64,000 nt of DNA from Rhizophagus irregularis (taxonomy: Eukaryota; Glomeromycota; Glomeromycetes; Glomerales; Glomeraceae). The DNA is taken from contig NC_089436.1 in the NCBI RefSeq assembly GCF_026210795.1, positions 558,001 to 622,000 on the forward strand. Direction: 5' to 3'. The translations under genes were made by a program, and so were the position numbers. Below are positions 2,910 through 59,579 of the stretch, one piece after another (positions within the stretch are counted from its first letter, which is position 1; every line of letters starts with the position of its first letter). The notes under the pieces were generated by a model that was not told where the DNA came from, searched no databases, and was given only the letters and a program-made list of their open reading frames with translations.

Positions 2910-3240
2910 TATTCTTTTTTTTAGAATGCTGGATCTCTTGTTTGTAGAATAACGGGACTTCTTTTTTCGCTGGATTTTTGAATGAATCTGGATTGGAATG
3001 TAGTAAGAAATAGAGAAGGGGAGAAGAACTTTTTGTTAATTTTAAAGAAACATAGTAAGGAATAGAGGGGAGATTTCCTTTTAATATTAAAGAAACGTAC
3101 TAACATTTCTTTCTTTCTTTTTTTAGGTTTTCAGACTTTTTGAATAGAACTTGAGCTTGAAATGTAAGAAATAGAGGAGGAGGGGGTTTCTTTTTAATAT
3201 TAAAGAAACGTACTAACATTTCTTTCTTTTTTTACTGATA
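2910..3240 (+). repeat. Intron-module array III (small, degenerate)
   Basis: Two to three tandem units look like short exon segments followed by introns. One intron-like unit ends at the acceptor TTTTTTTAG (3126), and the next begins at the donor GTAAGAAAT near 3163. Both contain GAAACGTACTAACATTTC, a near-perfect hairpin with the fungal branch-site consensus TACTAAC in its loop, followed by a T-rich tract. The purine-rich G tract after the donor (GAGGAGGAGGGGG) matches introns at 15576 and 15715. The last unit ends without AG. Confidence 0.6.
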
Positions 3241-3544
3241 CTATATATATATATAAATGTTGATTCTTATAAGTACATTGCTTAAAAAAAACGTTACATT
3301 AATATTGAATACATCAATTTCTTATGTGCCATAGGCCAAAGATCGTGTTTTAGTAGGTTTTATATATAAAAGTTCCTTTAAAAATAAAATATGTATTGTG
3401 ATTACAAAATAATTCCTAATATATGGAATTTTTATAAAACTTTATTATTTTTTTTTTAAAAAAAAATTATATTAAAAATTATTCATACGATAAAAAAAAA
3501 TATAAAAAAAACATTATTGAATATTATAATATATTACGAAAAGA

Positions 3545-7149: not shown

Positions 7150-10100
7150 ATGAATAATAAAAAAAAGTAAAACCTCTACCTCTACCTCTGTGTCTGATTT
7201 AGTAAAACCCAAAAAAACTAAAATTGAAATCTCTGTGTCTGATTTAATAAAATCAAAAAAAAGTAAAGTTGAATCATCTGCCTCTGTATCCTATTTAATA
7301 AAATCTAAAATGGATAATTCAATAAAATCTAAAAAAACAAAGATGGTCGATTTAATAAAATCCAAAAAAAGGTACCTGTATCCATGTCTTTGTATTCGTT
7401 GTAATGGCACAAAGGTTGATTTTCGCACTCAAGAAAATCACACAAAGGAGAAAAGTTTATGGAACTCAGAGAATGCTAGAAAAAATCAGGCAGATACTAT
7501 TATAGCGAGAAAACAAAGAAAATCCATCATTATTCAAGATGCGAACCCTACAAAAAAGCGAAAAAGAAAAAGGGCATTAAATCCTAATCCTAATTCTTTC
7601 CAACAAAATAATGTCTTTGATCTTTTCAATGAAGAAACTGATTCATCCCAATCAAATAATAATGAAAACATACATACATTATTTTCATCATCACCATCAT
7701 TGCCAAATCCTTCTTATTTTCATATTCCAGCACCTGATGAAAATAAGGATAATGATGAATATATATATTATAATGAAGAAGAAGAAGAAAATGATGAATA
7801 TATATATTACAATGAAGAAGAAGAAGAAAATGATGATGATGAGGATGATGGTGATAATGATGAGGATAATGGTGATGAAAATAATGGTGCTGAGAATAAT
7901 GATGGTGAAGATGAAGGTGATTATAATGAAGATGATGATGATGATAATGATGGAAATGATGAGGAGGAGAAGGATGATATAGAAGAATTTTTTGCATCTC
8001 CTGAATTTGATAATAATGAAGTATTTGTAATGGAAAGCTTAAGTGATTCTATTAATACTGAGATTATAATATGGTTATTTAAATTTCAACAAAGATTTCG
8101 ATTACCTGATGTGGCACTTGAAGCATTAATAAAATTCTTACATATTGTACTTACTCGTTTAAATAAATCACAATTTAAAAATTTTCCAGCATCCTTATAT
8201 CTTGCAAAAAAAATGTTAAATATCTTTCAACCAAAAATGCAGTTAACTGTATGTAACAATTGTCATAAATTATATAATGTTAAAAATATTGTTGAATATA
8301 AAGAAGGAGGAAAAACTGCTATTGCAAATTGCCTACATGAAGAATTCCCAAATAATCCAGTACCCAGTCGTCGTAATAAATGCAATAATCCACTTTCTAT
8401 TCTTAAAAAAAAAGAAAGTGGAATAATTGCTGAACCTCGTATGATTTACCCTAAACCAAGTATTCGTCAACAATTAAGTATGTTATACCAACGACCTGGT
8501 TTTGAAAATATGCTAAAATTATCAGGAGTTCAAAGAGAAAGAGTTAATATCTATTCAGATATTTATGATGGTAATGTGTGGAAAACCTTTTCTTTTGATG
8601 GTAGTCCATTTTTTACATCAGAAACTGCCACAACCAATTTAGGTCTTCTTGTTAACCTTGACTGGTTTCAGCCATTTACATATACACAACACAGTACAGG
8701 TGCTATATATGCATCTATTTGTAACTTACCAAGATCAGAAAGGAATAAACCTGAAAATATTATATATTTGGGTTTTTTGCCAGGTCCAAAAGAAGTGGGA
8801 TTAGATCGTATTAATCATTATTTAGCCCCTATTGTAGACGAGCTTTTAGAGCTCTGGAGGGGCTGGAGAGTTCCAAAAACTTACCATTATCCTGATGGTC
8901 TAGACATTAAAGTTGCATTAATTGTTGGATCATCAGATATACCAGCCACACGAAAGTTGTTTGGACATGGATCTGCATTAATGAAATGCCATAGGTGTGA
9001 GAAACGTAGTGTTTATAGTGAAGAGTATAGAAAAAATCACTATGGAGGAGTTCATACTTATGAGTTGAGTAACGCAGAATCACATAGAAAACATGCATAT
9101 GAATGGTTGCAATGCAACTCAAAAAATTCTAGAGAAGATCATTTCAAAGAATATGGTATACGTTGGTCTGAATTGCTTCGTCTTCCATATATGGATCCCA
9201 TACGTTTTGCTGTAGTAGATCCAATGCATTGCCTTTTTCTTGGTGTAGCAAAATGGATAATTAAATCTATTTTTGTGAGCCAGGAAAAATTAAGTATGGA
9301 ACAACTTCGAGTGGCACAAAATAGAATGGATCATGTTAAATTACCTTCTGATATTGGTCGTATTCCTCCAAAAATTGCGATTGGAAGTGATGGATTTTCA
9401 AACTTAACTGCTGATCAATGGAAAACCTTTATTATGATTTAATTCTACAGCTATCTTGTGGGATATGTTAGATGATAATGACAGAAAGATTTTAGGATAT
9501 TTTGTTCGAGCATGTAATCTTTTGGTAACAAGAATTATTACTGAAGATGATTTAAAAGAAGCACAAGAGAGATTAAAAGATATGGCTTACCTTATAGAAA
9601 ACACATATGGACCAGAATTCATAACAAGTAATATACATCTTTCGCTTCACATTCCTGATTGCTGTCGTGATTATGGTCCTATATATAGTTTTTGGCTTTT
9701 TCCATTTGAGAGACTTAACGGATATATAGGTAGGATACTTGATGATTTTGTTGTCTTCTGATATCTTTTTTTAAAAAAAAATATAATCTATTATCTTTAG
9801 GATCATATCCCAACAGTAACCGAAAAATAGAACCTGAATTGATGAAAATTGTCCTTAAAAATACTTTAGTTGATTATCATCTAACATGTAAATGGACATC
9901 CGGCCTTTTAGATGAATCTCTTTGCTTTCTTGTAAAAAAAAAAGATGTAGGTAGTTTGGCACTTACAGCAGAAAGAGAAGAGTTACAATATTTCCTATCC
10001 ATGAGACATAGCACATCTAAAATATATGGTACTGAAGCAATACCAGGTCAACTGCTTAAACCATCATATTTAAGAGTTGTTATTCCTTCAGAATTGCGAA

Positions 10101-10608
10101 TGTTTCTATGTGAATGGTATGAAATGTTGTATGAGAAAGATCATGATGAAATATTAGGATTTATGGACTTACAAATTAACCAGCATGCAAGATTACAAAT
10201 TGGCTCAGAAATATTTGGATCTGTGATTGCAGGTCGTCATGAAACAAATTCAACTATTCTTGCGAAATGGAAAGCATTTAGTGATGAAACAATTGACATA
10301 TATCCAGGAGAGGTTCAATATTACTTTGAACATACACTTAGGTTACCTGAAGGGTCAAGAACTCATCTTTTGGCATATGTCAAATGGTATAAGAATGCAC
10401 CTTCCTCTGATATTCGGTTTAAACATAGGTTTATAGAACCAGAATTATCAAACACTGAATTATGGAAGGGTGAATACTATGAGGAAGGTTGTGATTCACT
10501 AATAGCGGTCCATAGAATATTATGTAGAGCCACAAAAATTAGAAACATTCGAGTCGGTAAACAAAATTATATATCAATAATGCCATTAAATAGAAAATTT
10601 AATTTATA
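7150..10608 (+). pseudogene. TNP2-type (CACTA/Plavaka-like) transposase gene, nearly whole
   Basis: The gene has two exons (intron 9730-9800, GTAGG...TTTAG) and about 1,130 codons. Order: Lys/Ser-rich N-terminus with repeated DLIKSKK units; a Cys cluster YPCLCIRC with HTKEK; NLS-like KKRKRKR; a long Asp/Glu tract with two YIYYNEEEEEN repeats; then the conserved core with WLFKFQQRFRLPDVA, CNNCHKLYN, LLVNLDWFQPF, YLGFLPGPKEV, a CHRC pair and VDPMHCLFLGVAKWI, the hallmark of TNP2-family transposases. The transposase cuts and pastes the element in the nucleus. Two one-base frame changes are visible: one in the A8 run at 7159-7166, just after the probable ATG 7150, and one near 9438 (TTTAATTC where TTTATTC keeps the frame). 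Without the upstream ATG the first usable start is about 7310. Recently dead copy or assembly homopolymer errors are both possible. Confidence 0.8.
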
Positions 10609-11033
10609 AATATTAATTCCGGATTGAATGTTTTTTACAATTATACAAACAATAAAACGTGATGAAACATAATTGACTGAAACATTCCTTAATAGTTAAC
10701 TTGAAACTAAAAATAGTTAGTCTTATTAGTCAACATGTACATCCCTCACATACAGCACTATAACAGGTATGTCAAATATATCATTATACTGAAATTACTG
10801 ATATTACTTTTCTTATAGTGGATAAGTATATATGTTGAGTTATACATAATTAGATAATTAGATCTTTTAATTTGATATTAATCTACACCGTAAATGGAAC
10901 TTAATTCGAACTTAATTCGATCTTAATTTACACCGTTTTAGAATAGTATCAAACAATTAGACAAATGATTGATATACCGATATTACCGATATTTAATATA
11001 CTGATATTCAATATACTGATATATCAATATAGG
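10583..11033 (+). repeat. 3' end of the TNP2 element, copy A
   Basis: It starts in the last codons of the transposase (LNRKFNL then stop) and runs about 450 bases downstream. It matches 19637-20035 over TTAATAGTT...GTTAGTC, AGTCAACATGTACATCCC, GAACTTAATTCGA, TTTTAGAATAGTATC, AACAATTAGACAAATGATTG and GATATTTAATATACTGATAT, and both end in AATATAGGT. The shared end point suggests this is the element's 3' boundary. Copy A holds one extra block of about 70 bases near 10800-10880. Confidence 0.85.
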
Positions 11034-14601: not shown

Positions 14602-14928
14602 TATATTCTTACATCGTAATAACGTTTTTAAAAAAAAATTGTGCTATAATAGATGTGATTTTTTAAAAAAAAAGAAAAAAAAAAATTGTATCACGTAATC
14701 AGTTTGCCGATCGATCTTTTTTTTTCAATTCGATAAAAAAAGTCTAATAAAAAAAAATATCTTTACTTGAACCTGACTTCGTAAAGTATATTTTTTTTAA
14801 AAAAAAGTGTTAACATTTCGTTATAAATGTTTTTTAATACACTTAGAAAAAAAAAATAAAAAATTAAAAGAAAGTCCGGTTCATCATTTTATTAGGCAAC
14901 TTCTTGGAATTAGACGAACTGACAGTAT

Positions 14929-15002
14929 GTAAGTAGGGTGACGTGCATATGTTTTTTTTTAAAAAAAAGTTTTTTTTAAAATTTTTCTCTTATTTTTTGT
15001 AG
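14929..15002 (+). other. Intron-like module, array I no. 0 (74 nt)
   Basis: Donor GTAAGTAGGG follows GACAGTAT, and the acceptor is TATTTTTTGTAG. The middle is A/T homopolymer. No donor hairpin. The next exon segment repeats GGACTTCGG twice and has a further possible acceptor TTTTGTAG at 15086. Confidence 0.55.
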
Positions 15003-15101
15003 ATATCGGTCCTTCGGCTTTGGACTTCGGATATTAACTTCTTGGACTTCGGTTGGATTTCTCGACGTTGGGGCCTTCTTTTGTAGGTCGGCAATGAATT
15101 G

Positions 15102-15185
15102 GTAAGTTTTGAAAATTTAAATTTATTTATTTTTGATTTTTTATTATTTTGATTTTATTTTGATTTTTTTTCTTTTTTTTTGCAG
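15102..15185 (+). other. Intron-like module, array I no. 1 (84 nt)
   Basis: Donor GTAAGTTTTGAAAATTTAAA is a worn type 1 donor. The T-rich middle repeats TTTTGATTTT, and the acceptor is TTTTTTTGCAG. It is followed by a 35-nt exon segment. Confidence 0.6.
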
Positions 15186-15220
15186 GTATTGAACTTTCCG
15201 AACTCTGGATGATATGATCG

Positions 15221-15320
15221 GTAAGTTTCGAAAGTTTAGTTTACTTTCGAAACATTTCTTGAAATTTTTTTTATTTTGTTTTGAAGAAACTAACCGTTTC
15301 TTCTTTTGTCTATTTTGTAG
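15221..15320 (+). other. Intron-like module, array I no. 2 (100 nt), two hairpins
   Basis: The donor-side hairpin GTTTCGAAAG (15225-15234) pairs with CTTTCGAAAC (15244-15253), 10 of 10. The branch-side hairpin GAAGAAAC-TAACC-GTTTCTTC (15283-15303) has 8 of 8 pairs and places CTAAC at the loop, 27 nt before the acceptor TTTTGTAG. Confidence 0.75.
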
Positions 15321-15356
15321 GAATTGTCTTTAAGATTTTTTGGATCAGCTTTTCAA

Positions 15357-15429
15357 GTAAGTTTCGAAGTTTCTCTTCGAAACTTTTTTTTTAAAAATTT
15401 TTTTTAAAATTAATTTTTTTTTATTGTAG
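15357..15429 (+). other. Intron-like module, array I no. 3 (73 nt)
   Basis: The type 1 donor GTAAGTTTCGAAG pairs GTTTCGAAG with CTTCGAAAC around the loop TTTCT (15361-15383), 9 of 9. The acceptor is TTATTGTAG. No CTAAC is seen. The exon segment on its left is 36 nt; the following segment (15430-15575) is the longest in the array. Confidence 0.7.
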
Positions 15430-15575
15430 GTTGTACTTATAATTAGACGTTATAACTCATGATGGGATCGGTGAAGTGTTTGGTAATGGTGACTCCAGTA
15501 AGGCACAGAAGCATATGACGACGAGGATGAACCTGATATATCTTGATCCAGCTTGAAACGAAACTGGACTTTAAG

Positions 15576-15663
15576 GTAGTGAGAAATGGGAAAAGGGGGT
15601 TTTTTTGTTATTTTAAACTTAAGAAACGAACTAACGTTTCTTTTCATTATTTTTTTTTTGTAG
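15576..15663 (+). other. Intron-like module, array I no. 4 (88 nt)
   Basis: Type 2: donor AAG|GTAGTGAGAA with a G-rich run. The hairpin AAGAAACG-AACTAA-CGTTTCTT (15621-15642) has 8 of 8 pairs with the branch-like CTAAC in the loop, 29 nt before TTTTGTAG. Confidence 0.75.
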
Positions 15664-15714
15664 GACGCGTACTAGAAGGGCGCCGGCTTGAATACTACGA
15701 CGGACTACTTTAAG

Positions 15715-15798
15715 GTAGTAAGAACGGGAAAAGGGGGGATTTTTTTATTTTAAATATGAGAAACGAACTAACGTTTCTTTAATTATTTTTTTTTGTAG
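15715..15798 (+). other. Intron-like module, array I no. 5 (84 nt)
   Basis: Type 2: donor within the inverted repeat ACTAC-TTTAAG-GTAGT, so the exon end forms the loop. It has AGAAACG-AACTAA-CGTTTCT at 15759-15778 and acceptor TTTTTTGTAG. The left and right exons both begin GACGCGTA, so exon and intron were duplicated together. Confidence 0.75.
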
Positions 15799-15838
15799 GA
15801 CGCGTAGAAAGGGGGATAGAGGAAGGTGATTTTGTTAG

Positions 15839-15922
15839 AACCAAGATTCTTATCTTGGTTTATTTATTTATTTTTTTATTTTATGGAACGGTTTACTAAC
15901 CGTTCCTTTCTTTCTTTTATAG
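15839..15922 (+). other. Intron-like module, array I no. 6, donor lost
   Basis: Type 3: AACCAAGAT-TCTT-ATCTTGGTT (15839-15860) is the donor hairpin of module 7 without its GTAAG loop. The branch hairpin GGAACGGTT-TACT-AACCGTTCC (15885-15906) is 9 of 9, with TACTAAC spanning loop and stem. The acceptor is TTTTATAG. An upstream AAG|GTGATT at 15826 might serve as a replacement donor. Confidence 0.6.
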
Positions 15923-15958
15923 GTTCGGGTAGACATCCGACGAATGGAACCAAGATTC

Positions 15959-16041
15959 GTAAGTATTCCGAATCTTGGTTTTTTTTTCTTTTTTTTAATA
16001 TTATGAACGGTTACTAACCGTTCCTTTTCTTTTTTTCATAG
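15959..16041 (+). other. Intron-like module, array I no. 7 (83 nt), best type 3 example
   Basis: AACCAAGATTCG (15948-15959) pairs 12 of 12 with CGAATCTTGGTT (15969-15980). The loop is TAAGTATTC, so the donor GTAAGT sits at the hairpin tip. The second hairpin GAACGGTT-ACT-AACCGTTC (16005-16023) puts the canonical branch site TACTAAC in its tip, 24 nt before the acceptor TTTTTCATAG. Confidence 0.85.
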
Positions 16042-16085
16042 ATTTGGGTGGGTTTCCAAAGAACCGAAAGAAGGAACCAAGATTC

Positions 16086-16192
16086 GTAAGTATATACGAA
16101 TCTTAACGGATTGGTAAGTTTCGAAGTTTCACTTCGAAACTTTTTAATTAAATTAATTTTTTTTTATTAATACTTTTATCTTTTTATCATAG
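16086..16192 (+). other. Composite intron-like module, array I no. 8
   Basis: Two donors share one acceptor (TTATCATAG, 16192). The first, 16086, is type 3 with AAGATTCGTA pairing 10 of 10 with TACGAATCTT. The second, 16114, is type 1 with GTTTCGAAG/CTTCGAAAC (16118-16140). It looks like a type 1 module fused into a type 3 module. Confidence 0.65.
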
Positions 16193-16218
16193 GTTGTATT
16201 TCCTGGACACGAAGATTG

Positions 16219-16260
16219 GTAAGTTTCGAAGAATAACTTCGAAACTTTTCTTTGTCCCAG
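16219..16260 (+). other. Short or truncated intron-like module, array I no. 9
   Basis: Type 1 donor with GTTTCGAAG-AATAA-CTTCGAAAC; the first AG in a pyrimidine context is TTTGTCCCAG at 16260, only 42 nt away. This is near the lower limit for a working intron, so it is probably truncated. The exon before it begins GTTGTA like the one at 15430. Confidence 0.5.
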
Positions 16261-17154: not shown

Positions 17155-19138
17155 ATGAAACGTTCAAGACATACCAAATACAATGCAAAGAAACGATTAC
17201 AAAAGACATCTATGGTACTTTTCATTTTACTTCTAAAAATATAAACAATTCCACTATAATCTAATATCAGAATTTTATAATTAAACAGCAAGTTCAAGAT
17301 ACGAATTCTTCTTCTCAAACAATAGCTTTTGATCTTATAGAGGTATATGATATTATCATTTATAAACTGGATGATTTACTGATCTAGTTTAATATATAAA
17401 TGAATCAGGATGATGATCTATTTATATACTACTAGATCTAATACTTATATAAATAAGTAATTTAACGAGACAAATTTTTTTTTTAATTTATAATTAAGCA
17501 ACAAACTCAAGATGATGTTAGTTCCTCATCTGTTAGTTCCTCCTCGCCTGTTGAAGTAAAAACAAACATAATATTTAATCCTTTGCAGGTATATATTATC
17601 TTTGATATGTCATAAAATATAAAATATAAATAAAATAATCTATATTGTATAATTTAAGCATCGAACTCAAGGAGGTTCCAGAGATTTAAGTACCTCAGAT
17701 ATAGTTCGATATATGAAAAATGAATGGTCAAGTGTTCCGCTTTGCGCTTTTTGCCGAATATTTTCTAATGTAACAACAATTTCAATTATGAAAGATATTT
17801 CAGTAATGGATTTATTAATTGAATGCTTAATAAGGGAATCAAGACAATCTAAAAATAATAATGACATTCCTGAAATTCCTTTAGAATTTTATAATCTTGC
17901 TAAAAGTATTACTGAATCAACTAATGATCAATTAATGAACAATAATAATGATATGTGGATTAAATTTGGTCAATGGTTGGAATTAAAAAAGCCAATTAGT
18001 AAAAGTGATGTACATCAACATCTTAAATCACAATGGAAGAGACTTTCACATGCTGCTGAAATTCGAAATTCTAAAGTTTTGGAAATATCCAAAGAAATTT
18101 TAGAAATTGAGAAAAAAAAATCAACTATAAATAAAAAAAATGATTGTATCAGCACAAGATAATAATATTAAGAACTTTCGTTATGTAACAAATTCTGAAT
18201 GTATTGTTGATGGTTGTGGTAAAACTTTGGTTCATCTGGATGGACTTGATGATTTTAATGCTGTCATTGAAGCAACCAAAGCCATAAATAGTTATTATTT
18301 TCATATGTTGGACAATCCAATCCATCGAAGTAGAAGTTTTTGGAAAAATCTTGCTGAACGATTTGGAGCTTTCATTAGTTATGGTGATCTTCCATATACT
18401 ACTTCTGATACTGCCAGCTCTCATAATATTGATCATCAGAATTGTGTTAACGATCTACTTTTTGCACTACAACCAATATCAAATAGTGTAAACAGATTTG
18501 TTAACAAATATTATGAACATTATTATACAAAACTAAGCAAGTTAACAATAGGACCATTTGTACCGAGAACTTTTGGAATTTTTCCCACAATAGCTATTAA
18601 TTTTAACGTAATCAGTAATTACCATTGGGATAGTAATGATGATCCAAATGGACTTTGTTTTTTGGTAGCTTTGGGAGATTTTGAGGGAGGCGAATTATGT
18701 TTTCCTCAACTTCAAATCCTGGTAAAATTAAAACCAGGACAAATTGTTGCATTTCCTTCTTATTTGCTATTACATGGCAACCTTCCGATTATTAGAGGGA
18801 TAAGATTCAGTATAGTTTATTTTGTGCATGCGAATTTTTTATCTAAAAAATTTGAGAATTTTCATAAAAATAATGATAATGATACAATCATTAAAATACA
18901 AGATCTTTATAATTCTCAAGGTCATAATCCAAAACGAATTTTACTTAAAAAAGCACAACAATTTCAAATTGAGGAGGAATCATCAGAAAATTCAACAGAT
19001 AAAAGAAGATACAAAGATGGTAAATATATATTTTTATTGTTTGTTTTTTTTTTAAATAAATAAATATCTAATTTGTAAATTATTTTAGATTTGATAAAAG
19101 GACGAAGAGGTTTAAGACATGAAGATCTTTTGGAATAG
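17155..19138 (+). CDS. 2OG-Fe(II) dioxygenase-fold protein (TET/JBP-like)
   Basis: Exons are 17155-17214, 17289-17342, 17499-17588, 17659-19019 and 19089-19138, all GT...AG. Exons 2, 3 and 4 each begin with a Gln/His-rich unit (QVQD, QQTQDD, HRTQGG), as if one small exon had been duplicated. The C-terminal half has the double-stranded beta-helix signature: YHWDSND (H-x-D iron ligands, about 18620), GGELCFP, PGQIVAFPSYLLLHGN (distal His) and GIRFSIV (Arg for 2-oxoglutarate). Such enzymes oxidise bases or side chains using Fe(II), O2 and 2-oxoglutarate. The H-x-D...GGEL...H...R layout resembles the fungal TET/JBP-type oxygenases known to travel with transposons. The frame changes by one base in the A8 run at 18132-18139 between the N-terminal segment and the catalytic half, so it is a broken gene, an assembly error, or two proteins with a second start MIVSAQ at 18140. 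Confidence 0.7.
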
Positions 19139-24008: not shown

Positions 24009-27000
24009 CAGTGTTGGGTTTTGGACTTGTCCAATTGGTTTTTTGAATTGGACAGTTTTGGACGGTCCAAAACTAGTTTTGGACCGTCCTAAACTGTCCA
24101 AAAGTTCTATGGGTTTTGGACAGTCCAAAACTGTCCAAAACTGTCCAAAACTAGGTTTTGGACTGTCCAAAATTGTCCAAAACTGTCTAAAACCCATATT
24201 TAGTAAGACTAAGAGATTATATGTAGATCATTTCAAGATTATCTTTTTTTTACTTTTGTTCATAACTTCGTAATATTTTTTTTCTTTATACTCTGCTTAT
24301 AAGTTATAACCTTACTACATTTACACTTTAAAGTTTAAATTTAATAATATTTTAACTTATGCCACGTGGAGGCCGACCTAGGCATATTCTTTTTACATAT
24401 GTAACAATTTTGAAAAAAACTAATTCAGGAGACAAAGACCGTCAATGTATTTGCAATTGTTGTGCTGAGGTTTTAAAAGATGATGCCAAACCTATAGTAA
24501 ATAGAAAGGAAAGAATTAAAAAACATTTAACAAATTGTAAATATTTTTGGGACAAATATAAAGGAGAAGCAGAGGAAATACTTGGAAATTGTGATGTTGA
24601 TGAAGAAATGCCACCATCTAAACATATACGTATTGATGGTAAGCATATGTATTTTTTTTAAGATTTTTTAAAAAAATATGTTTATTAATTAATTGTTTGA
24701 TTGTATTTACAGATGATAGTGCATCTATTTCAAGTTTTTGTACAAATTCTATGTCCTCATCATTTAATTTAAGTCGCCGGTCATCTGAATCTTATTATCA
24801 ATCATCAATATCCAAATTTGCTGTACGTGATCCTAATAAATCCGAAATTCCTAAATTCCATGATCTTTTAATTAGGATAACAGTATCTAATGGCTGGTCA
24901 TTTCAATGGGTTAATAATCCTTCAACACATGCTTTTTTTCATTGGTTAAATCCAAAGTTAAAGTTGCCAGATCGAAAGCAACTAGCTGGTCCAATATTAG
25001 ATCAAGCTATTAAAGGTATTGAACAATTACGTAAAGAAAAGTTAAACCAGGTACATGAACAAGCTGGTATTACTCTTTCATTCGATGGTTAGAAAAATAT
25101 TGTAAATCAAGAATTACTTGGAATTATGATTATATTACCTTCTGGCGAAACTTTGATATGGAAAGCAGTAGATATAAGTGATCAAAGAGGACGTGCAATT
25201 GATGTTATACCAAAAATAGAAGAAATATTAAATGATTTAAAGGATCAATCAATTAAAGTAGCCGCACTTGTGAGTGATAGTGCTGCGGCATATGCTTCAG
25301 CACGGTAAGTTGATTGTGTATTTATTATTTATTAATTAATTTATTTTTTTTTAATTTATTTAATGAATTTTTATTTTATTTAGACAACAGCTTCGTCTCA
25401 AATACCCTCAATATGTATTTTTACCATGCTTTGCACATCAATGCAATTTAGCTGTTGGAGAGATTTTTAAAGAATCTAGTATCTTGAAAAATGCATCTAC
25501 TAATGCCGTAAAATTGGTTAATTATTTTAATCATCCTAATAATGTGTATTTTATTGGAAAATTACGAAATATTCAACGAGAACTTTACTCAAAATATTAT
25601 GCAATAATAAGACCCGGCGATACAAGATGGAATTCTTATTATGAATGTTATTTAAGTTTAATTCGGACTAAACAGGCATTGAGAGTAAGTGAAATTTATT
25701 AATTAAATATTAAAAAATTAAATACTAATTTATTATTTTTTAATAGAATTTAGTTACTCGTTATGAGCCTCTTGAAGAAACTTCATCAAGATCTACTGAA
25801 TTATACCTTCCAACTGATATCTGCCAAATAATTATGGGTGATTTATTTTGGTCCCGTATTTCACAACTTGCAACATTGATGAAACCTTATTGTGGAGCGA
25901 CTTGATAAATTGCAAACAGATAAGGCTCGACTACATGATGTTGCTTTATCTTTTGGATATTTTATTAAATTTTGGGAGCAGAATACAGATCGATTCTTGT
26001 CTGAAGGCATAATTTCACGTCTTGAAAAACGTTGGAATGACTGGGAACAGCCTATACTACTACTTTCTCTTGTACTTCATCCCAAATATCGCCTTAACAA
26101 ATTTAATCCTGACTTAGAAATAATCAATTTTGTAACAATGGGAACTTGGCTTGATTATTATTATAAAGCTTGGACATCTGAAAAGCCAACAAAACTACTT
26201 GCACAATTTGAATCTTATCAAGTTAAAAAACCACCTTTTAATAATGAAACATATGAGCAATTTGGTGATGATGTTTTGGCATATTGGTATTATTGTTCTA
26301 CAATGTGCAAGGAATTAGGATTTATAGCAACAAAAATTTTCAGTATTTGTGTGAATTCAGCCTCTGTAGAACGATTATTCTCATCTATGGGATTTTTGCA
26401 CACTCCTCGAAGAAACAAATTAAAGGCAATATTGTTTTGTTTTTTATATATTATTGATATTTACTAATTAATTTTTATTTATTTATTTAGCATGAAAGAG
26501 TTGTAACTATGGCTCAACTTCGAGCAGATATTCATCAGACTGAAAATGAAAAAAAAGGAAACGTGAATCTGAAAAAATAAAGGTAAATATTACGCCACCA
26601 ATTATTGAATCAGATGAACAAGAAACTGGTAATACAGAACAAAATGAAGCTGAAAGAATACTTGAGGACTTACAAGAAACATCCAATTACATAACAACTG
26701 AACAAGATTGGACTGAACGTCTGAATGAATGGAATGAGCTATTAATGGAAGAAGAAAGAGCACAGAATCTGAATGTTACAGAGGAATCATTAAATTGTAG
26801 TGATAATGATCTATTAAATTCATATATCCATCCTGCTATTAATGCTGATGCAAAGTGGAACTTACGAGATCTTTTTATTAGAGAATTGGAAAGGCCAGAA
26901 TTTATATCTGTGTCTTCAGAATTTAATTAGTTAAATATGTAATTAGTTTATTATAATTTTTTTCGTTCAATATATAATATAATGTTAATAATAAATATTA

Positions 27001-27223
27001 AATAATGGCTTAAAATTTAGTAATGCTAATATAAATTTGTAATTAACATTTATTTTATATAATGCTTACCAGAATTGGTTATAATTTTGGCCCAAATTAA
27101 TTTAATAATCACGTAATCTGTCCAAAACTTGTCCAATGAAAAAAGGTTTTGGTTTTGGACAGGTTTTGGACAGGGTTTTGGACAGATGTCCAAAACATCA
27201 AATTGTCCAATTGCCCAACATTG
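24009..27223 (+). mobile_element. 3.2-kb hAT transposon with ends and target duplication
   Basis: The tips CAGTGTTGGG and CCCAACATTG are inverted repeats (9 of 10). The flanks share ATTAAAC (24002-24008 and 27224-27230), 7 bases of an expected 8-bp hAT duplication. Subterminal regions 24018-24190 and 27119-27205 are dense in GTCCAAAA/TTTTGGAC on both strands, more than fifteen in all, as expected of transposase-binding sites. It contains one multi-exon transposase gene. The ends agree with the hAT MITE at 5004. Confidence 0.92.
24359..26930 (+). pseudogene. hAT transposase gene (BED finger, hATC), recently broken
   Basis: Exons: 24359-24638, 24713-25304, 25384-25684, 25747-26425 and from 26491. 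A BED-type finger (CICNCC, then HLTNC) is near the N-terminus. The central RNase-H-like domain includes LSFDG, LVSDSAAAYASAR and FLPCFAHQCNLAVG. The C-terminal dimerisation domain has ICVNSASVERLFSSMG. The tail is acidic and Asn-rich, ending ISVSSEFN. Breaks: TAG at 25090 where TGG is expected (DGWKN context), a frame change near 25890 and another in the A8 run near 26551. The last intron has a GC donor (AAG|GCAATA) instead of GT. With so few breaks the copy is young. The ATG at 24359 is the first in frame, about 350 bp inside the left end. Confidence 0.85.
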
Positions 27224-27231
27224 ATTAAACT

Positions 27232-28080
27232 ATATATTATCTTATAACATGTAATGTATGTTAAATGACTGAAAAAGGCAAAAAAACAAAATATTAGCAA
27301 GAATGTTTCTTAGAAAAAAAAGTTTTCAAAAGTAATGTAACATTAAAAACTTATCTAGGTTCTAATAGAAAATATTTTTAAAAAAGTTTTTGAAATATTT
27401 TTTAAAAACTCATTTAAATTTTCAGAATCGAAAGTTGAAAAGGAAACCTATAAAAAAAAGATAAAGGAAGTATTAGTAGTAAACACTTCCTAAATATAAA
27501 AAAAAACAGTTTTTTTTTTAAAAAAAAAATTGAAGTCAGATAAACTCATCTAATAATTTAAACCTAAAATTTTTTTTATATTAGTAACTGCAATTAGCAT
27601 ATGAAAATAATTATAAAAAGTATATATTAATCTTAAATTTTCAAGTGGATCTTATAGTCTATTAGGTTTAGTAGACATTATAGCAACATGTTAAAATAGT
27701 GTATTTCAAATGTTACCTATCTGATTAACTATTATAATCACTCAACAGTGCACATATGGAGTTTTATATCAAAATGATAAATAGACAGAATAGTTTACAA
27801 ATTTATAATAATATTAGAATAGTTTACATTAACGTTATTCTAATAGTATCATAGTTAGTAAAAAAAAAAAATTAAATTTTCAAGACATTAAAATTAAATG
27901 ATAATATATAATATATAAGAGTGATATGATTGTAAAAACATCTGATTGTATATATATATCATTGCAAATTTGCAATTATACTTTTAAAATATAGTAAATA
28001 AAAATAAAAAAGTTTATTTTTTATTATAATTTTATTATAATGATTTTTTTTTTTATTATAATTCATTATGAACACAAAAA
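27232..28080. other. AT-rich spacer before the BTB cluster
   Basis: No gene or clear repeat. Long A/T runs and many stops in all frames. Confidence 0.55.
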
Positions 28081-28209
28081 CAGTGTCCACATGACATGCG
28101 ATTTTCATCTATTTAAACAACTTTTACATTACTGTGCAACAATAAATATTCATTCTTTCCTCTTTCTAACGCCAACGTTTAAATAACAGTTTTTAACGTT
28201 ATAAAATTA
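28080..28209 (+). promoter_or_regulatory. Upstream block of BTB gene 1, type A
   Basis: CACATGACATGCGATTTTCA, then ACTGTGCAACAATAAATATT, TTTCTAACGCCAACG and AACAGTTTTTAACGTTATAA lead to the ATG. The same blocks precede BTB genes 2 and 4. The TCACATGA motif recurs about 75-125 bp before the other members. Confidence 0.6.
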
Positions 28210-29655
28210 ATGGCGGAAAATTTTTTATTAGATTTATCACAAGATATTGGTCAACTTCTTACTACTGGAGATGGCCATGATTTAATTATTCAAGCTGGGG
28301 AAGGTCAAAACATGAAAGAACTCATTGCGCATTCATTAATTTTAAGTGCTAGGTCAACATATTTTAAAACTGCATTATCAAAAGAATGGGCAAAAAAAGA
28401 AAATGGTGTAATTATTTTCAAAAAGCCAAACATTTCTCCGGAAATCATGGAATTAATTTTAAATTATCTTTATACTGGATTAGTTAATTTCGATAAGCAA
28501 AATAGTGTAAAGGTGTTGAAACTTTTAGTGGCATCTGATGAACTGAATTTGCAAAAATTAAGTGATTATATTCAGACTTATCTGATTGATAATCAAGCAG
28601 AATATTTAAAGAATGATCCTGTTGATGTTCTTCAAATTACATTTCGATATGAGAGTTGTGAAGGCTTACGTAAATTTTGTTTAGATTCTATCTGTGAAGA
28701 ACCTAAAATACTTTTTGAATCTCCAAAATTCACTTCATTGGAAAAAGATCTTATTATTCTTTTCTTAAAAAATAATGAACTTGAAATGGAAGAAATTGAA
28801 ATTTGGGAATTCGTACTTAAATGGGCTCTTGCAAGAATGTCGACTCAACATAATGTTGATAATTTATCCCAATGGACATCAAGTAATTTCGAGGAATTAG
28901 AAAAAATCCTACACGATTTAATTCCACATATTAGATGGTTTCAAATTCCTTCAAAACTTTTTTGGAGAAAGGTTAATCCATTTAAGTCAATCTTTCCAAA
29001 ACAACTTTATGAGGATATTATGGGATATTATTGTGATCCTGACACACCACCAACTAATGCAATATTACCTTTAAGACGTAATTTATCTTATATTGATTCT
29101 GTTCTTATCGAAAGAGATCATTTATCAATAATTGCAAGCTGGATTGATAAAAAGGAAGAGTCTTTTTATAATACTAGAAGTACTCCTTATTCATTCACAC
29201 TTCTTTATCGTGCAAGTAGAGATGGATTTGAAGCTGCAAAATTTCATGAGTTATGTGATAATAAAGGTTCGACTATTATGATATCAAAATTAAAAGAAAA
29301 TGGCAAGTTAATTGGAGGTTATAATCCATTAAGTTTGCATCCTTATAATTCTTATACTAATAGCAATGGAAGTTGGCAATCTACATCAGATAGTTTCTTA
29401 TTTTCTTTTACAAAAAAAGAAGAAATTAATTCGGCATATATAACAAGAGTTAATCTAGATTCTCAAGTTTATGCAGTATGTTATGGTTCAAATTACGGTC
29501 CAGCTTTTGGTAGTGGATGGGATTTAATTATAGATCGTAATAATATTATTAAAACATGTGGTAGAGGTACATATTTAGACGTATACAATATTATAAATTC
29601 TGGACATAATCATATTTTGGAAGATTATGAAGTATATCAAGTAGTAAAAAAATGA
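28210..29655 (+). CDS. BTB-BACK-TLDc protein 1
   Basis: 481 residues, no intron. The BTB fold is at about 20-125 (DLIIQAGEG, AHSLILSARSTYFKTAL with the conserved His41), followed by a BACK-like helical region (about 130-245, with LRKFCLDSIC and FLKNNELEMEE). A TLDc domain occupies about 300-480 (SIIASWID, LLYRASRDGFEAAKFHELC, GGYNPL, FGSGWDL, DYEVYQV). BTB-BACK proteins often act as CUL3 adaptors, and TLDc domains can bind the V-ATPase or are linked to oxidative-stress protection; neither is shown here. The family is heavily expanded in Rhizophagus. This is the first of six tandem copies. Confidence 0.9.
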   Translation: MAENFLLDLSQDIGQLLTTGDGHDLIIQAGEGQNMKELIAHSLILSARSTYFKTALSKEWAKKENGVIIFKKPNISPEIMELILNYLYTGLVNFDKQNSVKVLKLLVASDELNLQKLSDYIQTYLIDNQAEYLKNDPVDVLQITFRYESCEGLRKFCLDSICEEPKILFESPKFTSLEKDLIILFLKNNELEMEEIEIWEFVLKWALARMSTQHNVDNLSQWTSSNFEELEKILHDLIPHIRWFQIPSKLFWRKVNPFKSIFPKQLYEDIMGYYCDPDTPPTNAILPLRRNLSYIDSVLIERDHLSIIASWIDKKEESFYNTRSTPYSFTLLYRASRDGFEAAKFHELCDNKGSTIMISKLKENGKLIGGYNPLSLHPYNSYTNSNGSWQSTSDSFLFSFTKKEEINSAYITRVNLDSQVYAVCYGSNYGPAFGSGWDLIIDRNNIIKTCGRGTYLDVYNIINSGHNHILEDYEVYQVVKK

Positions 29656-29810
29656 TTATTAAATAAACTGATGTCACGGTTATATCACATGACACGCCAT
29701 TCCGAATTTTATTTAATGTTCACGATACTGTGCAACAATAAATATTCATTCTTTCCTCTTTCTAACGCTAACGTTTAAATAACAGTTTTTTTGATAACGT
29801 TATAAAAATA
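29656..29810 (+). promoter_or_regulatory. Upstream block of BTB gene 2, type A
   Basis: Carries TATCACATGACACGCCATT, CTGTGCAACAATAAATATTC, TTTCTAACGCTAACG and AACAGTTTTTTTGATAACG before the ATG, nearly identical to the block before gene 1. Length 155 bp between genes, so promoter and preceding terminator must share it. Confidence 0.6.
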
Positions 29811-31262
29811 ATGACGGAAAATTTTTTATTAGATTTATCCCAAGATATTGGACAACTTCTTACTACTGGAGATGGCCATGATTTAATTATTCAAACTGGA
29901 GAAGGTCAAAACATAAAAGAAATCTTTGCACATTCATTAATATTAAGTGCTAGGTCAACATATTTTAAAACTGCATTATCAAAAGAATGGGCAAAAAAAG
30001 AAAATGGTGTAATTATTTTCAAAAAGTCAAATATTTCTCCAGAAATCATGGAATTAATTTTAAAATATCTTTATACTGGATTAATTAATCTCGATAAGCA
30101 AAATGGTGCAAAAGTGTTAAAGCTTTTGATAGCGTCTGATGAACTGAATTTGCAAAAATTAAGTGATTACATTCAAACTTATTTGATTGATAATCAAGCA
30201 GAATATTTAAAAAATGATCCTGTTGATGTTCTTCAAATTGTATTTCGGTATGAGAGTTGTGAAGATTTACGTAAATTTTGTTTAGATACTATTTGTAAAG
30301 ATCCTAATATACTTTTTGAATCTCCAAAATTCACTTCATTGGAAAAAGACCTTATTATTCTTTTCTTAAAAAATGATATGCTTGAAATGGAAGAAATTGA
30401 TATTTGGGAATTCATACTTAAATGGGCTCTTGTAAGAATGTCAACTCAACATAATGTTGATAACTTATCTCAATGGACATCAAGTAATTTTGAAGAATTA
30501 GAAATAATTTTACATGATTTAATTCCGCATATTAGATGGTTTCAAATTCCTTCAAAACTCTTTTGGAGAAAGATTAATCAATTTGAAGCAATATTTCCAA
30601 AACAACTTTATAAAGATATTATTGGATATTATTGTGATCCTGACACAACACCAACTAATGCAATATTACCTTTAAGACGTAGTTTATCTAATATTGATTC
30701 TGTTCTTATCGAAAGAGATCATTTATCAATAATTGCAAGCTGGATTGATAAAAAGGAAAAGTCTTTTTATAATACTAAAAGTACTCCTTATTTATTCAAA
30801 CTTCTTTATCGTGCAAGTAGAGATGGATTTGAAGCTGCAAAATTTCATGAATTATGTGATAATAAAGGTTCGACCATTATGATATCAAAATTTAAAGAAA
30901 ATGGCCAGTTAATTGGAGGTTATAATCCATTAAGTTGGCATCCTTATAATTCTTATACTAATAGCAATGGAAGTTGGCAATCTACATCAGATAGTTTCTT
31001 ATTTTCTTTTACAAGAAAGGAAGAAATTAATTCGGCATTTTTAACAAGAGTTAAAAATTCTGGAGTTTACGCAGTATGTTATGATTCAAATTATGGGCCA
31101 GCTTTTGGAGACGGATGGGATTTAATTATAGAGCGTAAAAAATTTATTAGAACATATGGTTGCGGTACATATTCAGATGTATTTAAAATTATAAATTGTG
31201 GTAAAGATTATATTTTAGAAGATTATGAGGTACATCAGGTAGTAAAAAATGATGATAAATAA
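29811..31262 (+). CDS. BTB-BACK-TLDc protein 2
   Basis: 483 residues, intronless, colinear with the neighbours. It starts MTENFLLDLS. It has EIFAHSLILS in the BTB core, LRKFCLDTIC in BACK and FEAAKFHELCDNKGSTIM in TLDc. The substitutions that set it apart cluster in the last 60 residues (KNSGVYAVCYDSNYG, RKKFIRTYGCG), the variable face of TLDc in this cluster. It is closest to gene 1, with which it shares a type A promoter. Confidence 0.9.
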   Translation: MTENFLLDLSQDIGQLLTTGDGHDLIIQTGEGQNIKEIFAHSLILSARSTYFKTALSKEWAKKENGVIIFKKSNISPEIMELILKYLYTGLINLDKQNGAKVLKLLIASDELNLQKLSDYIQTYLIDNQAEYLKNDPVDVLQIVFRYESCEDLRKFCLDTICKDPNILFESPKFTSLEKDLIILFLKNDMLEMEEIDIWEFILKWALVRMSTQHNVDNLSQWTSSNFEELEIILHDLIPHIRWFQIPSKLFWRKINQFEAIFPKQLYKDIIGYYCDPDTTPTNAILPLRRSLSNIDSVLIERDHLSIIASWIDKKEKSFYNTKSTPYLFKLLYRASRDGFEAAKFHELCDNKGSTIMISKFKENGQLIGGYNPLSWHPYNSYTNSNGSWQSTSDSFLFSFTRKEEINSAFLTRVKNSGVYAVCYDSNYGPAFGDGWDLIIERKKFIRTYGCGTYSDVFKIINCGKDYILEDYEVHQVVKNDDK

Positions 31263-31269
31263 ATTAAAT

Positions 31270-31362
31270 TGATTCGCTGTTACATATCACATGATATGTG
31301 ATCTTCATTTATTTATTATAAAGTTAGTACGACAATTCTTTCTCTAATTTTTGAAAATAAAA
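31270..31362 (+). promoter_or_regulatory. Upstream block of BTB gene 3, type B
   Basis: TATCACATGATATGTGATCT, CATTTATTTATTATAAAGTT, GACAATTCTTTCTC and TTTTTGAAAATAAAA precede the ATG. This block differs from the type A leader and is shared with the decayed copy at 34555 and with gene 5. Confidence 0.6.
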
Positions 31363-32823
31363 ATGGCGGAAAACTTGTTATTAGATTTATCACAAGATAT
31401 TGGTCAACTTCTTACTTCTGGAGATAATTATGATTTAATTATTCAAGCTGGAGAAGGTCAAAATATGAAAGAATTTTTTGCACATTCATTAATACTAAGA
31501 GCTAGGTCAACATATTTCAAAACTGCATTATCAAAAGAATGGGCGAAAAAAGAAAATGGTGTAATTATTTTCAAAAAGCCAAATATTTCTCCAGAAATTA
31601 TTGAATTAATTTTAGAATATCTTTATACTGGATTGGTTAATTTTAATAAACAAAATGGAGCACAAATGTTAAAACTTTTAATGGCATCTGATGAATTGGA
31701 TTTGCAAAAATTAAATGATTATATTCAAACTTATCTGATTAATAATCAAGCAGAATATTTAAAAAATGATCCTGTTGGCGTTCTTCAAATTGTATTTCGG
31801 TATGAGAGTTGTGAAAATTTACGTAAATTTTGTTTAGACACTATTTGTAAAGATCCTAAAATACTTTTTGAATCTCCAAAATTCACTTCATTAGAAAAAG
31901 ACCTTATTATTCTTTTCTTAAAAAATAATAAGCTTGAAATGGAAGAAATTGATATTTGGGAATCCATACTTAAATGGGCTCTTGCAAGAATGTCTACTCA
32001 ACATAATGTTGATGACTTATCTCAATGGGTGTCAAATAATTTTGAAGAATTAGAAAAAATTTTACACGATTTAATTCCACATATTAGATGGTTTCAAATT
32101 CCTGGAAAAGTTTTTTGGAGAAAGATTAATCAATTTGAGCCAATATTTCAAAAACAACTTTATAAAGATATTATTGGATATCATATTGATCCTGACACAC
32201 CACCAATTAATGCAATATTACCTTTAAGACGTAATTTATCTTATATTGATTCTGTTCTTATCAAAAGAGATCACTTATCAATAATTGCAAGCTGGATTGA
32301 TAAAAAGGAAAAGTCTTTTTATAATACTAGAAGTACTCCTTATTTATTCAAACTTCTTTATCGTGCAAGTAGAGATGGATTTGAAGCTGCAAAATTTCAT
32401 GAGTTATGTGATAATAAAGGTTCGACTATTATGATATCAAAATTAAAAGAAAATGACCGGTTGATTGGAGGTTATAATCCATTAAGTTGGCATCCTTATA
32501 ATTCTCATGTTAATAGCAATGGAAGTTGGCAATCTACATCAGATAGTTTCTTATTTTCTTTTACAAAAAAAGAAGAAATTAATTCGGCATTTTTAACAAG
32601 AGTTGCAGGTGATAATCGTTGTCAAATTTATGCAGTATGTTATCATTTAAGTTATGGACCAGCTTTTGGTTTTGGATGGGATTTAATTATAGATCGTAAT
32701 AACATTATTAGTACGGGTGGTAAAAGTACATATTCAGGCGTATATGATATGATAAATTCTGGACAAAATCATATTTTGGAAGATTATGAAGTACATCAAG
32801 TAGTAAAAAATGATTATAAATAA
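31363..32823 (+). CDS. BTB-BACK-TLDc protein 3
   Basis: 486 residues from ATG 31363, which aligns with the MAEN start of the paralogues; the four codons upstream in frame lack an ATG. Same domain order as gene 1. Distinctive points are LRARSTYF in the BTB core, EPIFQKQLYKDIIGYHIDPD, a Lys in the usual VLIERDH block (VLIKRDH), and an insertion AGDNRCQ in the variable TLDc loop. The interval to gene 2 is only about 100 bp. Confidence 0.9.
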   Translation: MAENLLLDLSQDIGQLLTSGDNYDLIIQAGEGQNMKEFFAHSLILRARSTYFKTALSKEWAKKENGVIIFKKPNISPEIIELILEYLYTGLVNFNKQNGAQMLKLLMASDELDLQKLNDYIQTYLINNQAEYLKNDPVGVLQIVFRYESCENLRKFCLDTICKDPKILFESPKFTSLEKDLIILFLKNNKLEMEEIDIWESILKWALARMSTQHNVDDLSQWVSNNFEELEKILHDLIPHIRWFQIPGKVFWRKINQFEPIFQKQLYKDIIGYHIDPDTPPINAILPLRRNLSYIDSVLIKRDHLSIIASWIDKKEKSFYNTRSTPYLFKLLYRASRDGFEAAKFHELCDNKGSTIMISKLKENDRLIGGYNPLSWHPYNSHVNSNGSWQSTSDSFLFSFTKKEEINSAFLTRVAGDNRCQIYAVCYHLSYGPAFGFGWDLIIDRNNIISTGGKSTYSGVYDMINSGQNHILEDYEVHQVVKNDYK

Positions 32824-32987
32824 ACTGATGTCACAGTTATAATATCACATGACATACGATTTTCATCCGGAAAATAATCAATAAAGCTCCGAATTTTATT
32901 TAATGATAGCACCGTGCTACAAATTCTTTCTCTTTCTAACACTGACGTTAAATAACAGTTTTTTGATAACGTTGTAAACTGAAATTC
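32824..32987 (+). promoter_or_regulatory. Upstream block of BTB gene 4, type A
   Basis: ATATCACATGACATACGATT, then TTCTTTCTCTTTCTAACAC, GACGTTAAATAACAG and TTTTTTGATAACGTTG. It matches the leaders of genes 1 and 2 with an internal deletion. Confidence 0.55.
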
Positions 32988-34439: not shown

Positions 34440-34479
34440 TAATAAACACGATAAAATAAATTAAATTGATTCGCCGTTA

Positions 34480-34554
34480 TATATCAAATCTTCATTTATT
34501 TATTATAAAGTTTAGTGCGACAATTCTTTTTCTATCGTTAATTTTTGAAAATAA
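34480..34554 (+). promoter_or_regulatory. Upstream block of the decayed BTB copy, type B
   Basis: ATCTTCATTTATTTATTATA, AAGTTTAGTGCGACAATTC and AATTTTTGAAAATAA, as before genes 3 and 5. Confidence 0.5.
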
Positions 34555-35731: not shown

Positions 35732-35739
35732 TTAAATTG

Positions 35740-46016: not shown

Positions 46017-46789
46017 GTCCAGAGCGAAGCGAAGGACTATATATATTTATGAACCTTAATGACATATTGGATCACGTGGCGATGTCTGTTTGTCATTTCT
46101 GATTAGTCTGCACAGATTGTGTCATTGAAATTTCGTGCTACTTCAAAAATAAACAAGTGTAATAATCATAATAAGTTTATGATAAACATGATTACCTGAT
46201 AATCACTTTTTTTGTTTGGTTTCGTCTAGTGAGTATATTTTTTTTTAATTGACTTCAAAGGAATGTTTTTGATTTATTTCTTATTCTTTTTCTAGGGTTT
46301 CTGGATTTCTTGTATATACTGGACTGGTAAGTTGTTTTTTTATTTGTTTTGCTTTAAAGAAACGTTTCTAACGTTTCACTTATTATTATTTCTAGAGACA
46401 CGGGATTTTTGTACACGCCAGATTTTTAAAGGTAATTTGGCTTTTCTTATTTGTTTGACTTTAAAGAAACATTTCTAATGTTTCATTTCTTACTTTTATC
46501 CTAGGGTTTCTAGATTTCTTGACTGGTAAGTTGTTTTTTATTTGTTTTGCTTTAAAGAAACATTTTTAATAACGTTTCATTTTTATTTTTTTTATCTAGG
46601 AATGCGGGTTTTTTGTATATGCTGGACTTTTAAAGGTAAATTGTGAAGAGGGGCTTTTCTTATTTGTTTAACTTTAAAGAAATGTTTCTAACGTTTCATT
46701 TTTTATTTTTTTTAAGGATGCCAGATTTTTTGTACAAATTGAATTTTTAAAGATATTTGGATTTTTGTACAAAATCTTTCGCTCTGGAC
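46017..46789 (+). mobile_element. Intron-module array II bounded by 12-bp inverted repeats
   Basis: The ends GTCCAGAGCGAA (46017-46028) and TTCGCTCTGGAC (46778-46789) are perfect inverted repeats. Inside are five introns: 46229-46295, 46327-46395, 46432-46504, 46526-46599 and 46636-46716 (67-81 nt), separated by exons of 31, 36, 21 and 36 nt. Exons and introns alternate between type A (GGTTTCTGGATTTCTTG exon, GTAAGTTGTTTT donor) and type B (ACACGGGATTTTTGTACACG exon, AAAG|GTAATTTGG donor), so the pair was duplicated as a unit. Most introns contain TTTAAAGAAACG-TTTCTAA-CGTTTC or a variant, putting CTAAC in a hairpin about 23 nt from the acceptor. No reading frame. A 211-bp unspliced leader precedes the first donor. 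No clear target duplication. Confidence 0.75.
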
Positions 46790-59575: not shown

Positions 59576-59579
59576 TATG

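What the first reader, a model, noticed from the sequence alone, without database searches (positions are those of the whole stretch)
14929..16260. Chain of tiny exons and introns whose splice sites sit in hairpins
About ten intron-like modules stand in a row. In the best ones the donor GTAAGT lies at the tip of a 9-12 bp perfect hairpin and the branch site (TA)CTAAC lies in a second hairpin, 23-29 nt before a good acceptor. Three families of inverted repeat (TTCGAAG, GAAACG, GAACGGTT/AACCAAGATTCG) do the same job, so the layout is kept while the bases differ. That is hard to explain by simple duplication and suggests selection for donor and branch site presented on stems. Candidates: introner-like mobile introns, or a noncoding RNA made by serial splicing.
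Basis: partly seen in the sequence, partly recalled or inferred. Interest (0 to 1): 0.88.

Follow-up and report, generated by a model that had tools for sequence, protein, structure and literature searches.

The report
Tandem array of hairpin-bearing spliceosomal introns
A stretch of AT-rich, probably fungal DNA carries a row of tiny exons and introns whose splice signals sit in or beside perfect hairpins, and similar rows lie elsewhere in the same window, which suggests a family of intron-dense, apparently non-coding genes, although splicing itself has not been shown.

Summary
Array A (14929-16260) has 11 donor-bearing intron modules and 11 GC-containing perfect hairpins (arm 8 or more) against a shuffle mean of 0.16, each at or within 13 nt of a donor or branch site. 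Two more arrays (B, 46229-46770; C, 2920-3245) and one minus-strand site (27450-27506) carry branch-site hairpins, that of C with a mismatch.

Corrections. (1) The donor is near a hairpin tip in two modules (A7, A8) and at the stem base, partly paired, in four. Branch adenines are mostly paired in 5 of 10. Predicted accessibility is like controls, so "presentation" is not supported. (2) Tandem duplication accounts for much of the layout; it does not explain paired arm changes between copies (three of eight pairs in four chosen copies).

Best reading: a dispersed family of tandemly duplicated mini-exon/intron units, probably transcribed and spliced into non-coding RNA, stems kept by selection for intron folding and/or template switching. 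Rivals: introner-like elements, decayed genes, mutational palindromes, unspliced satellite. No RNA data or genome was available.

The parts
14929..15002 (+). Array A intron A0 (GTAAGT...TTTGTAG), no GC-containing hairpin
15102..15185 (+). Array A intron A1, no GC hairpin, no CTAAC
15221..15320 (+). Intron A2: 11-bp hairpin starting 4 nt after the donor G (15225-15253) and 8-bp branch hairpin GAAGAAAC-TAACC-GTTTCTTC (15283-15303)
   Evidence: (z -4.18)
15357..15429 (+). Intron A3: 11-bp hairpin at donor base (15359-15385); no branch hairpin
   Evidence: z -3.95
15576..15663 (+). Intron A4 (donor GTAGTG at 15576 or GTGAGA at 15579), 8-bp branch hairpin 15621-15642
15715..15798 (+). Intron A5, tandem copy of A4, 7-bp branch hairpin
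   Evidence: 104-nt block, 88%
15826..15922 (+). Intron A6: hairpin 15839-15860 and 9-bp branch hairpin 15885-15906; weak donor GTGATT
   Evidence: z -6.00
15948..16041 (+). Intron A7 (donor 15959) with its 12-bp hairpin 15948-15980, whose 5' arm is in the exon and whose loop holds TAAGT, and 8-bp branch hairpin 16005-16023
   Evidence: (z -5.31 for 15945-16041)
16079..16104 (+). A8: 10-bp hairpin with donor 16086 near its tip; no acceptor before the next donor
16114..16192 (+). Intron A9: 12-bp hairpin at donor base (16116-16142)
   Evidence: z -5.91
16219..16260 (+). A10: donor with 11-bp hairpin 16221-16247; acceptor uncertain
46229..46770 (+). Array B: mini-exons and introns B0-B4; branch hairpins GAAACGTT-TCT-AACGTTTC (46359-46377), GAAACATT-TCT-AATGTTTC (46466-46484), GAAATGTT-TCT-AACGTTTC (46679-46697); B3 broken; B0 without CTAAY; B4 ends AAG
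2920..3245 (+). Array C: two unit copies plus a truncated one, branch segment AAAGAAACGTACTAACATTTCTTT (one C.A mismatch); C2 has no nearby acceptor
27450..27506 (-). Site D: branch hairpin AGGAAGTGTT-TACTACT-AATACTTCCT (10 bp, one G.U) followed by a T tract and TAG; no good donor found by eye
   Evidence: (E 1.4e-4, not in the training set)
14780..14844 (+). Possible degenerate module upstream of A0 (weak)
   Evidence: (14791-14835, E 0.019)

Best explanation
Arrays A, B and C are diverged members of one dispersed family of tandem mini-exon + intron units in an AT-rich nuclear genome, probably of a Glomeromycotina fungus. Each array is most likely transcribed from the + strand and its 70-100 nt U2-type introns are removed one after another, leaving a short non-coding spliced RNA. 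Units multiply by local tandem duplication and unequal exchange. In many introns one or two short stems, starting at the donor and/or enclosing the branch site, fold the intron into a compact form that shortens the effective donor-branch-acceptor path and hides parts of the splice signals, so that splicing may be made efficient or conditional. Shown: repeats, hairpins, splice-signal layout, cross-array similarity, paired arm changes in four copies. Inferred: transcription, splicing, non-coding nature, effect of the stems, and whether selection or template switching keeps the arms matched.
For: 11 hairpins against 0.16 expected. CTAAY sites with pyrimidine tract and YAG: stems >=7 bp at 7 of 8 in arrays against 2 of 14 outside; shuffles expect 0.29 and 0.34 (Fisher p 0.0015). 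GTAAG with a stem >=8 bp nearby: 6 of 15 in arrays, 1 of 93 outside, that one being the antisense of the B2 hairpin (p 1.7e-5). Fold z-scores -3.95 to -6.00 in 5 of 15 segments. Cross-array similarity B-C (76% over 78 columns, E 2e-7 to 4e-7) and A-C (about 76% over 63, E 1e-5 and 3e-6). A sequence-only profile from 11 branch-to-acceptor segments found D, outside its training set, at E 1.4e-4; D has its own 10-bp hairpin with different arms. Four same-register branch hairpins: 32 of 32 cells paired, 3 of 8 pairs changed on both sides, reached by 6 of 500 shuffles; chance p 0.0017 for A7 to B1 and 0.022 for B1 to B2. Branch-acceptor distance 23-29 nt in 9 of 9. Array A exons interrupted in all three frames under the simplest splice model.
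Against: No RNA evidence. Stems are missing in A0 and A1 and one side is missing in A3-A5 and A9; B3 is broken and C1/C2 carry a C.A mismatch. The minimum-energy folds of A4, B3, B4 and C2 do not use the branch hairpin, and 8 of 15 segments have z between -1.36 and 0.03. T-rich stretches unrelated to the arrays reach blastn E-values (2.7e-7, 9.6e-7) as good as the cross-array matches, with the low-complexity filter off, so those E-values are inflated. Only 4 of 11 branch segments were used for the covariation count, and the measure of further pair types was reached by 35 of 500 shuffles; RNAalifold on all 11 found no common pair. Predicted donor and branch accessibility is like controls. One of five control introns is also strongly structured (z -3.28). 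Homology of A7 with B1 over 19 nt is assumed.
Confidence: 0.5

Rival explanations
1. Mutational palindromes: replication template switching makes and repairs perfect inverted repeats in a tandem-repeat array, so arms match and change together without selection on RNA.
For: The mechanism is published and predicts perfect stems and multi-base compensatory changes (PMC8794818, abstract). By eye, A2 against A3 differ by a symmetrical one-base-pair insertion in both arms. Different arm families would arise freely.
Against: The 11 hairpins of array A sit at or within 13 nt of donors or branch sites, CTAAY lies over the loop of 4 of them, and hairpins at branch sites recur in B and at D.
Confidence: 0.2
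2. Introner-like elements: introns that copied themselves into new positions, here nested into one locus.
For: Introns are more alike than exons in A4/A5 and A3/A9. [quoted passage not shown]
Against: By eye the shared blocks include 8-9 nt of exon on one or both sides, as in segmental duplication; no target-site duplication by eye; no copy noticed in a coding gene of this window. In the 2022 survey, 7 of 8 introner-bearing groups are aquatic, all except pezizomycotina fungi (PMC9860276 passages; 'Rhizophagus' is not in its main text).
Confidence: 0.15
3. Decayed micro-exon protein genes: arrays are pseudogenes or alternative-splicing-rich genes with small symmetrical exons.
For: 9 of 12 model exons (9 of A, 3 internal ones of B) have lengths divisible by three (lengths; binomial p 0.0039, copies not independent). 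By hand, the B exons read through in one frame, without an ATG at the start.
Against: All three frames of spliced array A contain stops. The best ATG ORF over permissive splices in A (108 codons) is exceeded in 31 of 60 random 1600-nt stretches of the window, coding genes included; in B the best is 22 codons, exceeded in 56 of 60 random 800-nt stretches.
Confidence: 0.12
4. Unspliced tandem satellite that resembles introns by its T-rich and GTAAGT-containing unit.
For: Clear tandem duplication; some modules lack a donor, branch site or acceptor.
Against: Constant donor-branch-acceptor order and 23-29 nt branch-acceptor distance over units with unlike sequence.
Confidence: 0.1

Closest known systems
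Introner-like elements and stwintrons of ascomycete fungi (Hypoxylaceae; PMC9024468)
   Same: Multi-copy, sequence-similar fungal introns with stable predicted structure; splice signals may be masked in stems (passages).
   Different: There the termini form inverted repeats that pair with each other, bringing distal splice sites together. Here hairpins are local (donor; branch) and units stand head to tail in apparently non-coding arrays.
Diplomonad and parabasalid introns with internal stem-loops (PMC6679479)
   Same: Stem-loops between splice signals are proposed to shorten the effective intron (passages).
   Different: Individual introns, not arrays; the authors forced the splice signals to be single-stranded in their folding.
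Non-coding multi-exon host genes such as snoRNA host genes (recalled)
   Same: Short non-coding exons and many short introns.
   Different: No Rfam match at gathering threshold, nothing convincing at relaxed threshold, no exact C box in the three arrays.
SP7-like effector genes of Rhizophagus irregularis (PMC11333574)
   Same: Repeat-based family in Glomeromycotina.
   Different: SP7-like genes share a conserved intron before the first repeat and encode proteins (passages); no coding excess here.

Membership tests
U2-type spliceosomal introns | GT donor, CTAAC-like branch, YAG acceptor in order and spacing | tested here: met
   9 of 9 measured introns have the branch A 23-29 nt before AG (B4 ends AAG). 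A0, A1, A3, A9, B0 and B3 have no CTAAY site listed and C2 no acceptor, so the feature is met for part of the modules only.
U2-type spliceosomal introns | Actual removal from RNA | not testable with these tools
   No transcript data held.
Introner-like elements | Many near-identical introns at new positions in genes | not testable with these tools
   No genome held; no copy in a coding gene noticed in the window.
Introner-like elements | Target-site duplication or terminal inverted repeats at intron ends | tested here: inconclusive
   Pairwise alignments inspected by eye only: no direct repeats around one intron noticed; hairpins are internal. Many introner families also lack these signs (49 of 130 with TSD, 72 of 177 with TIR).
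snoRNA host gene | C/D or H/ACA snoRNA in introns | tested here: not met
   exact C box pattern absent from the arrays. H/ACA tested through Rfam only.
Protein-coding micro-exon gene | Open frame across spliced exons | tested here: not met
   Array A. Array B is short and open by hand only, so inconclusive there; array C not translated by a call.
Stwintron | Intron nested inside a donor, branch or acceptor element of another | not tested
   A8 (donor 28 nt before donor A9) could be examined for this.

The most novel reading that the evidence does not exclude
A new class of dispersed, non-coding, serially spliced genes in arbuscular mycorrhizal fungi, in which two-hairpin introns are selected for structure rather than sequence; unrelated arm sequences do the same job, making the intron itself the conserved, repeatedly amplified unit.
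Probability: 0.25. Interest if true: 0.82.

Novelty: new variant of a known kind. Interest (0 to 1): 0.6.

Why it matters
If spliced, these arrays would be a natural series of introns in which donor and branch are placed in stems of different sequence and position, a direct test of how RNA structure controls splicing and of how introns multiply. Three arrays in 64 kb would imply a large family if the window is typical, which could bear on intron gain and on unannotated transcripts of an ecologically central fungal group.

Tried and rejected
Coding gene: spliced translation and a splice-aware ORF search gave no excess. Known RNA family: none at the gathering threshold; the relaxed hits (13, 1) are bacterial, archaeal and viral families, a plant microRNA and a human lncRNA region, all far below their cut-offs. 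tRNA: none (bacterial settings). snoRNA host: no exact C box in the arrays. Relatives in viral contigs: four DNA patterns; only one search gave hits, 7 contigs, which I judge to be chance from their G+C (0.36-0.68) and context. Relatives in genome contigs: a pattern and a BTB-TLDc protein meant to find contaminating fungal contigs gave none; the same protein in viral contigs gave none. Presentation hypothesis: 13 donors against 93 and 10 branch sites against 180, p 0.75 and 0.88; there the C2 donor was placed one base early and the donors of A6, B0, B2, B4 and C1 were left out. A covariance model with pairs was not obtained: RNAalifold found none on the MAFFT alignment of 11 segments, so R1 is sequence-only. 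Promoter scan and structure prediction were not run. Literature: I saw no paper on such arrays among the listed hits of searches (open-access PMC only; lists capped, e.g. 20 of 1,146 and 12 of 348).

Full report
Setting. The window is AT-rich (G+C 0.17-0.38 in 2-kb steps). It carries BTB/BACK/TLDc, Sel1-repeat kinase, tnp2 and hAT transposase and Tet_JBP-like open frames (Tet_JBP is below Pfam's cut-off). From recall this fits a Glomeromycotina fungus such as Rhizophagus; no call tested the species. No genome is held for it, so all comparison is within 64 kb.

Anatomy of array A. I place introns at 14929-15002, 15102-15185, 15221-15320, 15357-15429, 15576-15663, 15715-15798, 15826-15922, 15959-16041 and 16114-16192, and two more donors at 16086 and 16219. 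Exons between them are 26-146 nt (the 72-nt one contains the unspliced A8). The hairpins with arm >=8 and at least two G/C are listed; 11 fall in array A, where 1000 dinucleotide shuffles average 0.163 with a maximum of 2. Each lies at, or within 13 nt of, a donor or a branch site.

Where the signals lie in the stems. Donor side: A2, A3, A9 and A10 have the stem starting 2-4 nt after the donor G; A7 and A8 have the donor in the upper stem and loop; A6 has a hairpin 13 nt downstream of a weak donor. Branch side: of 10 sites, the branch adenines are mostly paired in A4, A6, A7, B1 and B2, free in A2, A5, B4 and C2, and between in C1. In A4 the perfect hairpin would leave them free, but the ensemble prefers another fold. 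Donor unpairedness has median 0.30 at 13 array sites and 0.34 at 93 other GTAAG sites (p 0.75). Branch AA unpairedness is 0.42 at 10 array sites and 0.58 at 180 others (p 0.88). So stems are real, but presentation is not supported.

More of the same. Blastn of the arrays against the window and a profile of 11 branch-to-acceptor segments show three arrays on the + strand and one minus-strand site. With the low-complexity filter off, plain T-rich stretches also match array A at E 2.7e-7 and 9.6e-7, so the cross-array E-values are inflated by composition; the shared donor-side and branch-side words are the better evidence. Site D (27450-27506 -) was not in the training set; its 10-bp hairpin has arms unlike those in A-C. 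Of 22 CTAAY + pyrimidine-tract + YAG sites in the window, 9 have stems of 7 bp or more with at most one G.U: 7 of 8 in arrays and 2 of 14 outside (D and 19770 -), with shuffle expectations of 0.29 and 0.34. By elimination the array miss is C1, whose outer arm has a single G. Without the tract filter the counts are 8 of 9 and 6 of 142 (expected 0.25 and 2.89).

Duplication. A4 and A5 share a 104-nt block at 88%, A6 and A7 a block of about 130 nt at 78%, A3 and A9 about 85 nt at 81%, the two halves of B about 300 nt at 75%, and C1 and C2 70 nt at 87%. Blocks include some exon sequence (by eye). B and C align across arrays (76% over 78 columns), as do A and C. So the layout is largely inherited by tandem duplication from at least three unit types.

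Evidence that pairing is kept. Of 11 branch segments I took the four with the same 3-nt-loop register (A7, B1, B2, B4) and left out A2, A4, A5, A6, B3, C1 and C2. All 32 cells pair and 3 of 8 pairs have a change on both sides; 6 of 500 shuffles reach this (35 of 500 for further pair types); none of the six slid controls has such a pair. A7 to B1: four stem changes make two complementary pairs (chance 0.0017). B1 to B2: two make one (0.022). B1 to B4: one change, giving a G-U. Against: B3 is broken, C1 and C2 have one mismatch, and RNAalifold finds no common pair in all 11. Template switching could also produce such paired changes (PMC8794818, abstract).

Stability. Of 15 array segments folded (A8, A10 and B0 were not), z is -6.00, -5.91, -5.31, -4.18 and -3.95 for A6, A9, A7 (with 14 nt of exon), A2 and A3; -2.71 and -2.30 for C2 and A4; between -1.36 and 0.03 for the other eight. 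Five ordinary introns that I inferred in and before the neighbouring Tet_JBP-like gene have z 0.32, -3.28, -0.87, -0.62 and 0.17 (one was cut at 148 of 156 nt, three have ends off by a base). Structure is thus enriched in array A but not unique to it.

Coding. With the simplest splice model every frame of array A has stops. The best ATG ORF over permissive splices is 108 codons, exceeded by 31 of 60 random 1600-nt stretches of the window, coding genes included. Nine of 12 model exon lengths are multiples of three (p 0.0039), a weak hint of coding ancestry since copies are not independent.

Verdict. I file it as a new variant of structured, duplicated spliceosomal introns in apparently non-coding arrays, with splicing unproven. 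The odds given to the rivals overlap, since duplication, selection and template switching can act together. Papers: passages of PMC11333574, PMC9860276, PMC9024468, PMC6679479 and PMC10234402 (which mentions no such arrays in the five passages shown); abstract and outline of PMC8794818.

Noticed in passing
27450-27506 (-): Isolated branch-site hairpin AGGAAGTGTT-TACTACT-AATACTTCCT with T tract and TAG, without an evident donor.
   Followed up: partly
24028-24193 and 27151-27196: Clusters of inverted and direct copies of GTTTTGGAC/GTCCAAAAC (9-13 bp palindromes), perhaps a small repeat or element end.
   Followed up: no
28183-37282: Five similar open frames of 481-496 codons in a row on the + strand; the first has BTB, BACK and TLDc domains, the others were not scanned.
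   Followed up: no
7154-9442: Open frame with a tnp2-type transposase domain; the next open frame, 9746-10609, had no Pfam match.
   Followed up: no
17653-19063: Open frames, one with a Tet_JBP-like oxygenase match just below Pfam's cut-off; inferred introns around them are mostly unstructured, one long one is structured.
   Followed up: partly
3001-3060: Truncated unit fused to array C1 (purine-rich donor segment and AAAGAAACAT, then a second donor), looks like a deletion between units.
   Followed up: partly
57616-60342: Long stretch of about 80-bp tandem repeats.
   Followed up: no
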